Positions 2,470 to 6,734 of a DNA stretch of 64,000 nucleotides are shown here, one piece after another. Both the position numbers and the translations under genes were made by a program. Source of the DNA: Photobacterium sp. TY1-4 (lineage in GTDB: Bacteria; Pseudomonadota; Gammaproteobacteria; Enterobacterales; Vibrionaceae); contig NZ_CP099734.1 in the NCBI RefSeq assembly GCF_025398175.1, positions 3,100,001-3,164,000 of the forward strand. The letters run 5' to 3'. Each line of letters begins with the position of its first letter. The first letter of the stretch is position 1. The notes under the pieces were generated by a model. It saw nothing but the letters and a program-made list of their open reading frames with translations, ran no database searches and had not been told where the DNA came from.

Positions 2470-2971
2470 GGGTTCACTCCAGCTAGGCATAAAATTTTCC
2501 GCAAATATGGCACGGATTGCCGCCAATTACCATGCTGACAGGCAAATTTGATATGTATCAAACAAAGACCGGATTTTCCGCCTCCGGCTTCCGGACGCCA
2601 AACTGCATAATATTCCCGGCGACCACTTTCCCGTCCGGCGTGATCCCCATCTTTACCCATCAAAACAGCATAGCCAGATCCCGGTGCGCCGCCGCTCGGG
2701 ACGCATGGCCTGACCCGGTAGCATGCAACGACAGGGCCGATTGCATAAAACCAACCTCGCCAGGCATTCCCCAACAGCATAATCACGCACAACCGTCCTC
2801 AAAATACCCTCACCGTCGCAATCGGTGGTTCTGCCGCCACATTCGTCCGGCAAAAAAGTGTGAAGCCCTCCAAAGTTAAACCGGATCAGTCGGCTTAAAA
2901 TCATCGCAGATAACAAAAAAAGCAGACTCGCCGTTCAGCGGTGAGCAGTGAAACAATAGAGAGATACGATC
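2470..2971. other. Intergenic region between rraB and the arc leader ORF
   Basis: About 500 bp without a credible gene. It holds the perfect FNR-type box at 2548-2561 and a possible -10 element (CATAAT, 2606-2611) about 63 bp from the box centre to the expected start site, a class I spacing. A transcript from there to arcD would have an untranslated leader of roughly 730 nt. Nothing else recognised. Confidence 0.5.
2548..2561. promoter_or_regulatory. Perfect FNR-type box
   Basis: TTGATATGTATCAA is an exact match to the FNR consensus TTGAT-N4-ATCAA. It lies in the divergent region between rraB and the arginine deiminase genes. ADI pathways are commonly induced in anoxia, so control of the arc transcript is the likelier role; an effect on rraB cannot be excluded. 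Confidence 0.72.
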
Positions 2972-3118
2972 ATGAGAAAATTCCATTCTGGCCCCGGTCG
3001 CCGAAGGCGATCCTTACCGCGCCGCCTCCGCTGCGTACTGACGCCGACCAGCCCACGGTGTTGCCAGGGCGCCCCCTTGGCAACACCGCGGTGCAGCGAA
3101 CGGCTCCCGTCAGCGTAG
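2972..3118 (+). CDS. Putative arginine-rich leader peptide upstream of arcD
   Basis: 48 codons, ATG at 2972 to TAG at 3116-3118, preceded by an AGAGAGA ribosome-binding sequence nearly identical to that of arcA. The peptide starts MRKFHSGPGRRRRSLPRRLR: 11 of 48 residues are Arg, with four in a row at residues 10-13 (CGC CGA AGG CGA, including rare codons) and three more at 17, 18 and 20. A perfect 11-bp hairpin (3056-3088) overlaps codons 29-39. Inference: ribosome stalling or arrest on the Arg stretch, in response to arginine, ornithine or charged tRNA-Arg, controls arcD expression. I do not recognise it as a named leader. Overlapping frames (e.g. 2941-3174) lack such a start context. Confidence 0.55.
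   Translation: MRKFHSGPGRRRRSLPRRLRCVLTPTSPRCCQGAPLATPRCSERLPSA
3056..3088 (+). promoter_or_regulatory. Hairpin inside the Arg-rich leader ORF
   Basis: CGGTGTTGCCA (3056-3066) and TGGCAACACCG (3078-3088) are perfectly complementary with an 11-nt loop. The stem begins about 25 nt after the last Arg codon of the dense run. A ribosome stalled on the run would leave it free, while one translating on would melt it. An outer pairing CTGACG/CGTCAG (3038-3043 with 3108-3113) could enclose it. Confidence 0.5.
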
Positions 3119-3191
3119 AGGCGACTTCAACCGCACACGTCCGTTTCGGCTTGCGCTCAGCCCTCAATCGCTGAACCAGCCACCGGATCCC

Positions 3192-3219
3192 TTGCCTGAC
3201 CCGCACCGGGCACAGGCAA
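3192..3219 (+). promoter_or_regulatory. Second leader hairpin upstream of arcD
   Basis: TTGCCTG (3192-3198) can pair with CAGGCAA (3213-3219), with GC-rich inner pairing CCCG/CGGG. It lies between the leader ORF stop and arcD and has no T-run, so it is not a simple terminator. Confidence 0.35.
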
Positions 3220-3312
3220 ACCGCACCCCAATCTGTACTGGGCCAAACCCGCTTTGGCATCCAGAGAGCACTGTCATGCCGGTCAACGGGCCGGCGCACA
3301 ACATGACCAGAG

Positions 3313-3328
3313 GTGTGCCGCGGCACAC
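3313..3328 (+). promoter_or_regulatory. Palindrome directly before the arcD ribosome-binding site
   Basis: GTGTGCCGCGGCACAC is a perfect 16-bp palindrome ending five bases before the AAGGAG of arcD. As RNA it could form a short hairpin that occludes or frames the initiation region, or as DNA an operator. Role unknown. Confidence 0.4.
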
Positions 3329-3345
3329 TCGGTAAGGAGATGACA

Positions 3346-4791
3346 ATGACGACGCAAACCGTACACAAAGAAGAAAAAGGCGGCTTCTTTGCCAACTTCA
3401 AGTTCCCCTCCGCCTACACCATTCTGTTCGCCCTGATTGCCCTGGTGGCCCTGATGACCTGGATTGTCCCGGCCGGGCAATACGAGCGGGTGATGAACGA
3501 AGAGCTGGGCAAGCAAGTGCCGGTCACCGGAACCTACCAACCGGTCGACAGTAACCCGCAAGGGGTGGTCGATGTCCTGCTCGCCCCGATTGACGGCTTC
3601 TACGACCACAACAGTTACGAAGCCGCCGCCATCGATGTCTCCCTGTTTATCCTGGTGATAGGTGGATTTTTGGGCCTGGTAACCAAAACCGGCGCCATTG
3701 ATGCCGGGATCGAGCGCGTCACCGCCCGCCTCAGAGGCCGGGAAGAGCTGATGATCCCGATCCTGATGGCCTTGTTTGCCGCCGGCGGGACGATCTACGG
3801 CATGGCGGAAGAATCCCTGCCCTTCTATACCCTGCTGGTTCCGGTCATGATGGCTGCCCGGTTTGACCCGCTGGTCGCCGCAGCCACGGTCCTGCTGGGC
3901 GCCGGGATCGGCACCCTGGGCTCCACCATCAACCCGTTTGCCACGGTGATCGCGGCCAACGCGGCCGGGATCCCGTTCACCGATGGCATTCTGCTACGCG
4001 TCGCCATCCTCGCCATCGGCTGGCTGATCTGCGTCTGGTACGTGATGCGCTACGCCAAAATGGTCCGCGCCGATCAAAGCAAATCCATCGTCTACGACAA
4101 GTTCGAAGAAAACCGGGCCCATTTCCTCGGCAACCAAAGCGAAGAAATGCTTGAGTTCACCCCGACCCGCAAAGTGATCCTGACCATCTTTGCCGCGTCC
4201 TTTGGCATCATGATCTACGGGGTCGCCGTGGCTGGCTGGTGGATGGCGGAGATCTCCGGCATGTTCCTCGCTTCCACCATCATCATCGGCCTGATTGCCC
4301 GCATGAGTGAGGAAGAGTTTACTTCGAGCTTTATTGATGGGGCCCGCGACCTGCTGGGCGTTGCCCTGATCATCGGGATTGCCCGCGGTATCGTGGTGAT
4401 TATGGACCGGGGGATGATCACCGACACCATCCTGAACTCGGCCGAGCATGCCGTCACCGGCCTCTCCTCGGTGATCTTCATCAATGTGATGTACTGGCTG
4501 GAGATCCTGCTGTCCTTCCTGGTACCGTCTTCATCCGGCCTCGCAGTCCTGACCATGCCGATCATGGCACCCCTGGCTGATTTCGCCGGCGTCGGGCGGG
4601 AGCTGGTGGTCACGGCGTATCAGTCTGCCTCCGGCATCGTTAACCTGATGACCCCGACCTCCGCAGTCGTCATGGGGGGGCTGGCCATCGCCCGGGTGCC
4701 TTATGTCCGGTGGGTCAAATGGGTGGCGCCGCTGCTGGGGATCCTCACGGTCCTGATCATGGCGATGCTCAGTGTCGGGGCGATGCTCTAA
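3346..4791 (+). CDS. arcD: YfcC/ArcD-type basic amino acid transporter, likely arginine/ornithine antiporter
   Basis: 481 residues, polytopic membrane protein of the DcuC/YfcC carrier family (about 12 hydrophobic segments; motifs GGTIYGMAEESLPFY, GSTINPFATVIAANAAG, LVPSSSGLAVLTMPIMAPLAD, LMTPTSAVVMGGLAIA). Members beside arginine deiminase genes are annotated as arginine/ornithine antiporters, and that context supports the call here. Substrate is inference. ATG 3346 is chosen because AAGGAG lies 6 bases upstream; the in-frame ATG at 3340 abuts the same site and an in-frame GTG at 3313 is within the palindrome. First gene of the arc cluster; its own terminator follows, so arcA is probably transcribed separately. 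Confidence 0.8.
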   Translation: MTTQTVHKEEKGGFFANFKFPSAYTILFALIALVALMTWIVPAGQYERVMNEELGKQVPVTGTYQPVDSNPQGVVDVLLAPIDGFYDHNSYEAAAIDVSLFILVIGGFLGLVTKTGAIDAGIERVTARLRGREELMIPILMALFAAGGTIYGMAEESLPFYTLLVPVMMAARFDPLVAAATVLLGAGIGTLGSTINPFATVIAANAAGIPFTDGILLRVAILAIGWLICVWYVMRYAKMVRADQSKSIVYDKFEENRAHFLGNQSEEMLEFTPTRKVILTIFAASFGIMIYGVAVAGWWMAEISGMFLASTIIIGLIARMSEEEFTSSFIDGARDLLGVALIIGIARGIVVIMDRGMITDTILNSAEHAVTGLSSVIFINVMYWLEILLSFLVPSSSGLAVLTMPIMAPLADFAGVGRELVVTAYQSASGIVNLMTPTSAVVMGGLAIARVPYVRWVKWVAPLLGILTVLIMAMLSVGAML

Positions 4792-4817
4792 CCCCGAATA
4801 TTGAACATTGATAGCTT

Positions 4818-4842
4818 AAAACCGCCTGCGGGCGGTTTTTTT
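4818..4842 (+). terminator. Rho-independent terminator after arcD
   Basis: AAAACCGCC-TGC-GGGCGG followed by seven T. It separates arcD from arcA. Confidence 0.85.
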
Positions 4843-5513
4843 ATATCCTTTCCCCGGTCTGAAATATCTCGTCAGATTCAACTCAAAAATCACACCTCAA
4901 ATATAAAGACAAAAACCCTCTCACCAAAATCATAGTCCAACCCCAAAATATACGCCCCAAAAATTAGCCCAGAAATAAATAAAAAACTCATTGCTAAATA
5001 ATAAACCCATATATCCCCGGAAGTAGCATCACGATTTAATTCATGTATAAAAACTACAAAAACAGCTCGTTAAAAATTAAAAGGAAAAATATTTGTTATC
5101 AAAAAGAAATATTCAGCCGGGGTTGATATAGCTAGCTAAAAAAAGTGCATAAGTTCATCCTGCTCATCACTTTCGCTTGTGGCAATAGAGTGAATAAACT
5201 TCCACCCGCAATCAGGTAGACCATAAAAACCAATCAAAAACAACAACATAAACTCAACCCCGCATTTAAATATCGCCAAATCGCCCATAAATACCCGGTC
5301 ATTGAAACTCAATAACACCTGCATAGATAATGTTAATAAAATCTATTTCCAGCCACTTTAAACAATAATCAAATTGTGACCCACCTCTAAGACCCCAAGG
5401 TTTGAAAGCGTAGAATGAATAACAGAAACAAAGCGGAACAATAATAAAAACCGTGAAATAAAACTCCTACAAATAAACCAGTCACCCTGGAAAAATAATA
5501 GAGAGAAACGATC
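4843..5513. other. Long AT-rich region upstream of arcA
   Basis: About 670 bp, strikingly AT-rich compared with flanking genes. No coding frame is convincing; two short minus-strand frames (about 62 codons each, near 5136-5324 and 5358-5549) look like AT-rich chance ORFs. I found no perfect FNR or ArgR box. It must contain the arcA promoter because of the terminator after arcD. Confidence 0.5.
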
Positions 5514-6734
5514 ATGAGTAAATTCTACGTAGGTTCTGAAATTGGTCAATTACGTCGCGTTCTTGTTCACCGTCCGGAACGAGCCCTCACGCATTTAACC
5601 CCATCGAACTGTCATGAATTATTATTTGATGATGTCCTGGCTGTGGAACGTGCCGGTGAAGAGCATGATGCCTTTGCCCAAACCCTGCGCGATCAAGGCG
5701 TCGAAGTTTTCCTGCTGAGCAATCTGCTGGCTGACACCCTGGCCGTCCCGGAAGCCAAAGACTGGCTGCTGAGCACACAGGTTTCCGACCTTCGCCTGGG
5801 CCCGCGTTTTGCCAATGACGTCCGCTGCTTCCTGGCCGATCTGCCGCATCAGGAGCTGGCTTCCATTCTGCTGGGCGGCCTGAGCTATGCAGAGCTTCCA
5901 ATTCAGTCCTCTTCGATGATGCAAAGCATGTACGATGCACATGACTTCATTATCAAGCCCCTGCCAAATCATTTGTTTACCCGCGACACTTCCTGCTGGG
6001 TGTATGGCGGTGTCTCCATTAACCCGATGGCGAAACCAGCCCGCCAGCGCGAAACCAACCACCTGCGGGCGATTTACCGCTGGCACCCGACCTTCGCCGG
6101 ACAAGACTTCATCAAATACTTCGGCGATGAAGAAAAGAGCTACGACAAATCCACCATCGAAGGCGGCGACGTACTGGTGATCGGTAAGGGTGCTGTCCTG
6201 ATTGGGATGTCTGAGCGCACCACCCCGCAAGGCGTCGAGCAACTGGCGTCCAGCCTGTTCAAACACGGCCAGGCCAAGCAAGTCATCGCCATGGAGCTGC
6301 CGAAGCACCGCTCCTGCATGCACTTAGATACCGTGATGACCCATATGCGGGAAGACACCTTCTCGGTCTACCCGGAAGTGGTGCGCAAAGACCTCAAATG
6401 CTGGAGCCTGACCGGTGATGCGAGCGGCACCGTGAACGTCAAAGAGGAAGGCTACTTCGTCCATGCGATTGAAAAAGCTCTGGGCGTCGGTCAGTTGAAT
6501 CTGATCACCACCGGCGGCGACAGCTACGAAGCCGAACGCGAGCAGTGGAACGATGCCAACAACGTGCTGACCGTCAAACCGGGCGTGGTCATTGGCTACG
6601 AGCGGAACGTCTACACCAACGAGAAATACGACAAGGCCGGGATAACTGTCCTGCCAATCCCGGGGGATGAACTGGGCCGCGGCCGCGGCGGCGCACGCTG
6701 CATGAGTTGCCCAATCGAGCGTGACGGTATTTAA
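5514..6734 (+). CDS. arcA: Arginine deiminase
   Basis: 406 residues, normal length. Hydrolyses arginine to citrulline and ammonia, first step of the ADI pathway in the cytoplasm. Visible signatures: LFDD (37-40), FTRDTS (155-160), EGGD (216-219), HLDT (270-273) and the C-terminal RCMSCP with the nucleophilic Cys (residue 399). Start ATG has AGAGAGA about nine bases upstream. It is followed by arcC and ornithine carbamoyltransferase, completing the pathway. The initiation region (ATAGAGAGA-ACGATCATGAG-AAATTC) is nearly duplicated at the Arg-rich leader ORF upstream of arcD. Confidence 0.97.

What the first reader, a model, noticed from the sequence alone, without database searches (positions are those of the whole stretch)
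2941..3345. Arginine-rich leader ORF and hairpins upstream of the arc transporter gene
A 48-codon ORF (2972-3118) with a strong ribosome-binding site encodes four consecutive Arg (residues 10-13) and Arg at 17, 18 and 20, followed by a perfect 11-bp hairpin (3056-3088), a second hairpin (3192-3219) and a 16-bp palindrome abutting the arcD RBS. Because ADI genes break down arginine, simple starvation attenuation would act the wrong way round. Ligand-induced ribosome arrest, as known for the ornithine-sensing SpeFL leader in E. coli, is more plausible. I know of no named leader peptide of this kind for arc operons.
Basis: partly seen in the sequence, partly recalled or inferred. Interest (0 to 1): 0.82.

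Follow-up and report, generated by a model that had tools for sequence, protein, structure and literature searches.

The report
Arginine-rich leader peptide before arcD
In front of an arginine-transporter gene of marine Photobacterium bacteria lies a short, arginine-rich gene that descends from the start of an arginine-degrading enzyme gene and most likely lets the cell adjust the transporter to its arginine supply.

Summary
The ORF (2972-3118) is a conserved leader ORF of arcD in Photobacterium. Of 26 leader loci compared, 25 have exactly GAGAGATACGATCATG at its start, and all 26 have TGTGA-N32-TAAAAT/TACAAT upstream. In 21 of 26 the first 29 codons hold 6-9 Arg. Three clades show in-frame purifying selection (dN/dS 0.29-0.37; column shuffles about 1).

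Its start matches the window's own arcA start over 33 bp at 91%; Vibrio sp. Of7-15 has a full-length arcA in that place.

Preferred mechanism: ribosome progress through the Arg run senses Arg-tRNA supply in cis. In this window's lineage codons 14-16 (3011-3019) pair with the arcD Shine-Dalgarno (3330-3338), and a ribosome on the Arg run would open it. The other 24 leaders show no comparable switch, so the general read-out is unresolved. SpeFL-like ligand-induced arrest is less likely. Function and direction are untested.

The parts
2859..2901 (+). arcD/leader promoter: TGTGA (2859-2863) and -10-like TAAAAT (2896-2901), 32 nt apart; activator site near -41.5 (CRP-like half-site, inferred)
   Evidence: TGTGA-N32-TAAAAT/TACAAT in 26 of 26 leader loci; the same spacing with up to 2 mismatches before arcD in 9 of 9 leaderless Photobacterium loci and, read by eye, in Vibrio; start of transcription not mapped
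2927..2945 (+). 5'UTR hairpin CTCGCCG/CGGTGAG upstream of the leader start; stem sequence differs between clades
   Evidence: predicted in the folds of the W, A, B and E alignments and in the window
2959..2964 (+). Shine-Dalgarno of the leader ORF (GAGAGA), inside the conserved GAGAGATACGATCATG
   Evidence: exact in 25 of 26 loci; 33-bp match, 91%, of 2951-2983 to the arcA start 5493-5525
2972..3118 (+). arcD leader ORF, 48 codons, remodelled 5' end of an arcA copy
2999..3010 (+). Arg codons 10-13 (CGC CGA AGG CGA); also a 5-bp mini-hairpin TCGCC-GAA-GGCGA (2998-3010)
   Evidence: AGA/AGG/CGA are 4 of 11 leader Arg codons against 3 of 81 in six arc and pyr genes of the window
3011..3019 (+). 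anti-Shine-Dalgarno TCCTTACCG (codons 14-16), complementary to 3330-3338
   Evidence: also in the sister species G008 (CTCCTTACC/GGTAAGGAG); no comparable pairing in the other 24 leaders
3056..3088 (+). 11-bp hairpin inside the ORF, after codon 28
   Evidence: G008 has a different hairpin here
3192..3219 (+). hairpin TTGCCTG/CAGGCAA; its 5' arm is missing in G008
3238..3264 (+). hairpin HP2 (CTGGGCCAA/TTGGC..CCAG); other clades carry a hairpin of other sequence at this place
   Evidence: seen by eye and in within-clade folds; RNAalifold on the joint alignment did not recover it
3273..3307 (+). hairpin HP3 (GTCATGCC...GGC...ATGAC)
   Evidence: four pairs recovered on the joint alignment
3313..3328 (+). 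hairpin HP4, palindrome just before the arcD Shine-Dalgarno; widespread arcD feature
3330..3338 (+). arcD Shine-Dalgarno region CGGTAAGGA, partner of 3011-3019
3346..4791 (+). arcD, arginine/ornithine antiporter type of the YfcC/DcuC family, downstream gene
   Evidence: Pfam PF03606 E 1.7e-123; NCBIfam YfcC model matched below its cut-off, 297 of 500 bits
5493..5525 (+). start region of arcA, matching the leader start

Best explanation
A cis-acting leader ORF of arcD made from the 5' end of an arcA copy. SHOWN from sequence: conserved promoter and start, coding constraint, Arg density, descent from arcA. INFERRED: it is translated, and the speed of the ribosome through the Arg run (6-9 Arg in 29 codons) reports the supply of charged tRNA-Arg. 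In this window's lineage, an empty or quickly vacated leader lets codons 14-16 (3011-3019) pair with the arcD Shine-Dalgarno (3330-3338) and keeps arcD down. A ribosome paused on codons 10-13 covers that stretch and frees arcD. The importer would then rise when arginyl-tRNA falls, for example because ADI burns arginine faster than it enters, while ArgR supplies ordinary induction by arginine. In the other clades the same sensor is kept, but its read-out is not this pairing; Rho access or mRNA stability are candidates.
For: ORF and start conserved: 25 of 26 exact start motif, 26 of 26 promoter spacing. dN/dS for codons 6 onward of 0.37, 0.29 and 0.36 in clades A, B and C, against 0.73-2.20 in the other two frames and about 1 in column shuffles (fraction of 1000 shuffles as low: 0.015, 0.001, 0.008). 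Arg columns in A and B: 1 of 15 varies in amino acid against 16 of 41 other columns (Fisher p 0.023), although 10 of 15 vary synonymously. Arg in the first 29 codons: 6-9 in 21 Arg-rich leaders, against 1-5 in 40 distinct ArcA N-termini; neutral simulation from arcA reaches the observed number with P 0.012 and 0.015 (two clade A leaders) and 0.05 (clade B). AGA/AGG/CGA are 48 of 153 Arg codons in the 21 leaders against 3 of 81 in six genes of the window. Anti-SD pairing in window and G008 is matched by 2 and 1 of 300 shuffles; predicted SD accessibility goes from 0.52 to 0.85 and from 0.02 to 0.90 with a ribosome on the Arg run. No intrinsic terminator on the + strand between 2700 and arcD. 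Precedent: Salmonella orf34/speF, with two Arg codons, pausing at low arginine and an RBS-hiding leader helix (PMC6386406). In V. fluvialis arcD is its own operon with its transcript starting 274 nt upstream and ArgR activation (PMC11172107).
Against: The anti-SD switch is predicted in only 2 of 26 leaders; in the other 24 a ribosome on the Arg run raises predicted SD accessibility by at most about 0.12 and lowers it clearly in two (L006, L008); in L021 and L022 it is a ribosome at the stop that raises it, 0.21-0.22 to 0.56. Five leaders (P. lipolyticum, P. profundum group) and P. damselae keep the start, P. profundum and P. damselae with one changed base each, but have 21-23 codons with 0-2 Arg. 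Nine Photobacterium loci of another clade lack the leader but keep the promoter. Third-position excess alone is weak (p 0.036, 0.107, 0.033). The simulated Arg excess is marginal for clade B and for the 6 Arg of P. jeanii in clade C (P 0.05-0.07). The codon-usage yardstick is six genes of this window only, used for leaders of other species too. One antisense frame is equally Arg-rich, so part of the Arg run could serve an RNA hairpin. No expression data.
Confidence: 0.45

Rival explanations
1. Opposite sign through Rho: full translation of the leader at ample arginine keeps Rho off the RNA, while stalling at the Arg run under low Arg-tRNA exposes C-rich RNA and ends transcription; arcD is on when arginine is plentiful.
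For: No intrinsic terminator; the RNA between leader and arcD has more C than G in 26 of 26 leaders, window 0.39 against 0.27; stop position free to vary; L-arginine raises ADI gene expression in V. fluvialis (PMC11172107, abstract).
Against: The C excess is modest and had no control region; Rho sites were not predicted here; ArgR already gives induction by arginine.
Confidence: 0.17
2. Decaying remnant: the arcA 5' fragment survives downstream of the arcD promoter; the ORF has no regulatory role and its Arg residues come from ArcA plus CG-rich RNA hairpins.
For: Descent from arcA; short Arg-poor versions in 5 of 26 leaders and P. damselae; no leader in nine Photobacterium loci, which keep the promoter all the same; mini-hairpin within the Arg run.
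Against: In-frame purifying selection in three clades; Arg columns kept through synonymous change; more Arg than ArcA itself; start motif almost invariant.
Confidence: 0.15
3. Ligand-induced ribosome arrest: free arginine, ornithine or citrulline together with the nascent leader stalls the ribosome, as SpeFL does with ornithine.
For: N-terminal 29 residues conserved across clades A and B; an arginine-pathway gene downstream; TnaC and SpeFL are precedents.
Against: No Pfam match for four leaders; variable and partly frame-shifted C-terminal half and stop; Arg positions drift in clade C.
Confidence: 0.12
4. The ORF makes a small basic protein that acts in trans, for example on RNA or on ArcA.
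For: Conserved basic N-terminus homologous to ArcA residues 1-29.
Against: Conservation falls off after residue 30 in clade A; in Salmonella, fusions without a working orf34 stayed unresponsive to arginine when ORF34 was supplied in trans (PMC6386406 passage).
Confidence: 0.05

Closest known systems
Salmonella orf34 / E. coli SpeFL leader of speF (DUF2618, PF10940)
   Same: Short leader ORF near the inferred transcript start, consecutive Arg codons at 12-13 there and at 10-13 here, an arginine/ornithine gene downstream, and (window lineage only) leader codons that pair with the downstream ribosome-binding site (PMC6386406 abstract and passages).
   Different: No match of four leaders to any Pfam model; different downstream gene; longer Arg run; stop and C-terminus not conserved; descends from arcA.
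Classical amino-acid attenuators (his, trp leader peptides; recalled)
   Same: Run of codons for the amino acid concerned; Arg codons change synonymously and, in clade C, change place while the count is kept.
   Different: No terminator-like site on the + strand before arcD; the gene serves transport for breakdown, not synthesis.
TnaC
   Same: Leader on a catabolic operon that includes a transporter (abstract of PMC10941005 in the listing).
   Different: TnaC arrests at termination with bound tryptophan (passages of PMC8429421); here the end of the ORF is not conserved.
ArcA, arginine deiminase
   Same: Leader residues 1-29 (to about 44 in clade C, by eye) are homologous to the ArcA N-terminus; same Shine-Dalgarno and start region.
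   Different: The catalytic domain is absent; the N-terminus is remodelled toward arginine.

Membership tests
SpeFL/ORF34 (PF10940) | Match to the PF10940 profile | tested here: not met
   hmmscan of 4 leaders (window, one each of clades A, B and C) against Pfam-A at E up to 1: no family listed; that PF10940 is in this copy was not checked separately
SpeFL/ORF34 (PF10940) | Two or more consecutive Arg codons in the N-terminal half | tested here: met
   21 of 26 leaders are Arg-rich, each with consecutive Arg; the 5 short ones have none
SpeFL/ORF34 (PF10940) | Leader codons pair with the Shine-Dalgarno of the next gene | tested here: inconclusive
   9-bp pairing in window and G008; 6 bp (shuffle p 0.07-0.16) in five clade B leaders; the other 19 no better than shuffles (p at least 0.36)
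SpeFL/ORF34 (PF10940) | Ornithine- or arginine-dependent ribosome arrest or pausing | not testable with these tools
   needs toeprinting or ribosome profiling
Classical transcription attenuator | Intrinsic terminator between leader ORF and gene | tested here: not met
   no + strand terminator-like site in 2700-3345; tested in the window only
Classical transcription attenuator | Run of cognate codons kept as amino acid rather than as DNA | tested here: met
   Arg columns: 1 of 15 amino-acid-variable, 10 of 15 synonymously variable in clades A and B
TnaC-like arrest peptide | Conserved end of the peptide at which the ribosome arrests | tested here: not met
   42 to 87 codons in the Arg-rich leaders, C-terminal half variable, frameshifts in clades A and C
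ArcA descent | Sequence homology to the ArcA N-terminus | tested here: met
   18 of 27 leaders (26 plus P. damselae) score above the best of 1080 shuffled decoys (best E 8.6e-8, best decoy 0.22); 9 do not, the window's own (E 5.8) among them, which is tied in by its 33-bp DNA match and through its relatives
ArcA descent | A relative with full-length arcA at the same place, same promoter and start | tested here: met
   Vibrio sp. Of7-15 (L068, same sequence as L133): promoter, GAGAGATACGATC, arcA of 406 aa, arcD

The most novel reading that the evidence does not exclude
A regulatory leader peptide born by exaptation of a pathway enzyme gene: the 5' end of arcA, whose own first codons already hold LRR...HRPER, was left between promoter and arcD and then enriched in Arg codons into a sensor of arginyl-tRNA supply. 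The read-out was rebuilt separately in different clades (Shine-Dalgarno release in this window's lineage). The boldest form is that the same start region at arcA itself already slows ribosomes and tunes ADI expression.
Probability: 0.3. Interest if true: 0.78.

Novelty: new variant of a known kind. Interest (0 to 1): 0.6.

Why it matters
If it works as proposed, arc transport would be controlled by translation as well as by ArgR, and a sensing leader would stand on the importer alone rather than on the enzymes, which resolves the objection that the logic runs backwards. It would also give a traceable case of how a leader peptide arises: a full-length arcA in the same place in a relative, the truncated and Arg-enriched form in 21 compared Photobacterium loci, short Arg-poor forms in others, and none in a further clade. 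That series can be tested with simple reporters.

Tried and rejected
Anti-SD pairing as the general mechanism: rejected, present in 2 of 26 leaders. One joint consensus structure for the stretch before arcD: on 22 sequences RNAalifold found only 4 pairs, in my view because MAFFT misaligns the hairpins, so I relied on within-clade folds and on the anchored stem test. Rfam: nothing near the leader; two sub-threshold hits at 4767-4851 overlap the terminator-like hairpin downstream of arcD. Arg-rich leaders at other named arcD loci: none in 66; four arcD paralogue upstream regions also showed none. arcD tree of 46 loci: base composition is uneven, long branches meet and some Vibrio fall among the Photobacterium clades, so it is used only to note that the Arg-rich label needs 2 changes and the nine leaderless loci form one group. 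ARG box at the published consensus with up to 3 mismatches: 13 in the window against 9.3 expected, none near arcD; with 4 mismatches weak matches such as TGCATAATATTCC occur upstream in relatives, without a control. Paper searches with nothing on an arc leader among the papers listed. Papers: PMC6386406 abstract, outline and passages; PMC8429421 passages; PMC11172107 abstract, outline and passages; PMC10308900 passages; everything else only as search listings. Herrero del Valle 2020 (SpeFL) was seen only as a citation in PMC8429421.

Full report
THE OBSERVATION. The window lies in a 5.6-Mb genome. The ORF 2972-3118, its Arg residues, its Shine-Dalgarno and the three inverted repeats are as described. 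The downstream gene is an ArcD-type antiporter (DcuC family), followed after about 720 nt by arcA, arcC and arcB.

ORIGIN. A self-search found that 2951-2983 matches the start of the window's own arcA (5493-5525) at 91% over 33 bp. In 30 genus loci examined by pattern (L003-L032), 25 carry the same start upstream of arcD; one of the other five is P. damselae, with a changed start. With P. chitinilyticum from the named collection this gives the 26 leaders compared. Their peptides read like ArcA N-termini rich in Arg, for example MSKFYPGSEPGRRRRTLQRRLRGALTYQT in the leader against [29 protein letters not shown] in ArcA of the same locus. A profile of 40 distinct ArcA N-termini scores 18 of 27 leaders (26 plus P. 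damselae) above the best of 1080 shuffled decoys. The window's own leader, its sister G008, two clade C leaders, the four P. profundum-type leaders and P. damselae fall below it. In clade C the resemblance reaches about residue 44 (PFEVL against LFDDVL; by eye).

THE INTERMEDIATE. Three Vibrio loci have rraB, arcA1, arcD, arcA2, arcC, arcB, pyrBI in order (L064, L068, L071). In Vibrio sp. Of7-15 (L068) arcA1 is full length (406 aa) and stands behind the arcD-type promoter and the start GAGAGATACGATCATG, where Photobacterium has the leader. In the other two, arcA1 has another start and the arcD-type promoter lies between arcA1 and arcD (by eye). A strict promoter-plus-start pattern hit 24 of 329 family genomes: 29 places, of which 22 are leader sites in the genus, one is this arcA1 outside it, and six are arcA sites; it misses at least the leaders of G005, G008 and G022. 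Whether Of7-15 keeps the ancestral state or shows an independent insertion is open; its two arcA copies are 86.5% identical.

IS IT A GENE? Codons 6 onward have dN/dS of 0.37 (A, 7 loci), 0.29 (B, 7) and 0.36 (C, 4). The two other frames give 0.73-2.20, and column shuffles give about 1, with 0.015, 0.001 and 0.008 of 1000 shuffles as low. Synonymous change is about half that of arcD in A and B (0.25 and 0.23 against 0.56 and 0.45) but not in C (0.30 against 0.28), which suggests RNA-level constraint as well in A and B. Beyond column 30 the ratio is 0.63 in A, 0.38 in B and 0.33 in C, and the end is frame-shifted between close relatives in A and C. Simple third-position excess reaches p 0.036, 0.107 and 0.033. 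A search of the large protein collection with 13 leaders found 17 proteins; 10 carry source names, all hypothetical or uncharacterized proteins of Photobacterium.

ARGININE. Arg in the first 29 codons is 6-9 in 21 leaders and 0-2 in the short ones, against 1-5 in ArcA. Neutral drift from arcA to the observed distance gives as many Arg with P 0.05 (B), 0.012 and 0.015 (A); for clade C, 7 or more with P about 0.02 and 6 or more with P about 0.06. In A and B Arg columns are kept as amino acid (1 of 15 variable) while 10 of 15 change synonymously, AGA/CGA and AGG/CGG included. In clade C the Arg positions move but the number stays at 6-7, as expected of a tRNA-supply sensor rather than of a precise arrest peptide. 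AGA, AGG and CGA are more common in the leaders than in six arc and pyr genes of the window; for leaders of other species this yardstick is rough. Caveat: one antisense frame is as Arg-rich, and 2998-3010 is also a mini-hairpin, so some of the Arg may serve RNA structure.

HOW IT MAY WORK. In the window and G008, codons 14-16 pair over 9 bp with the arcD Shine-Dalgarno. A ribosome footprint on the Arg run raises predicted accessibility from 0.52 to 0.85 and from 0.02 to 0.90, whereas a ribosome at codon 22 does not. This resembles Salmonella speF, where a leader helix hides the RBS and pausing at two Arg codons at low arginine favours expression (PMC6386406, abstract and passages). In the other 24 leaders the gain is at most about 0.12, two lose accessibility clearly, and in two clade C leaders it is a ribosome at the stop that opens the site, so a common read-out remains unknown. 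No intrinsic terminator is present in the window, and the stretch holds more C than G in all 26 (no control), which leaves Rho possible. In V. fluvialis arcD is a separate, ArgR-activated operon whose transcript starts 274 nt upstream (PMC11172107), so a leader acting on the importer alone is a plausible second layer.

WHAT IS NOT CONSERVED. Short leaders of 21-23 codons without an Arg run occur in P. lipolyticum and the P. profundum group, and a 21-codon one in P. damselae. The five measured starts lie 200-207 nt from arcD, against 343-404 nt in the 21 Arg-rich ones. Nine loci of another Photobacterium clade have no such start even with 4 mismatches in the 600 nt before arcD, yet all nine keep the TGTGA-N32-TAAAAT-like promoter (up to 2 mismatches). 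The hairpin before the Shine-Dalgarno is shared with Vibrio and belongs to arcD rather than to the leader.

VERDICT. A real leader ORF that I found undescribed in the papers searched, derived from arcA and under coding selection, most likely an arginine-supply sensor in cis. Function and sign are untested.

Noticed in passing
window 3313-3339 and the 75 nt before arcD in 86 distinct loci: A hairpin of changing sequence ends a few bases (mostly one or two) before the arcD Shine-Dalgarno in many Vibrio and Photobacterium, with or without the leader (score of at least 6 in 80% against 17% of shuffles); its role is unknown.
   Followed up: partly
window 2859-2901 and about 5380-5513: arcD/leader and arcA are each preceded by a similar TGTGA...TAAAAT/TAGAAT promoter-like arrangement; it looks like an activator-dependent promoter shared by both arc operons.
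   Followed up: partly
L064, L068, L071: Three Vibrio loci carry two arcA genes flanking arcD (arcA1-arcD-arcA2-arcC-arcB); the copies are 74.6, 86.5 and 69.5% identical.
   Followed up: yes
L113, L114: P. lipolyticum and P. chitinilyticum have a second arc cluster in the order arcA-arcD-arcC-arcB.
   Followed up: no
L042-L046: Five Photobacterium genomes have a second ArcD-like antiporter gene, 86% identical, with no arcA in the stretch fetched; in L042, L043, L045 and L046 it follows the end of another ORF and has no Arg-rich leader.
   Followed up: no
window 2927-2945: A hairpin in the 5'UTR before the leader start is predicted in clades W, A, B and E with changed stem sequence.
   Followed up: partly
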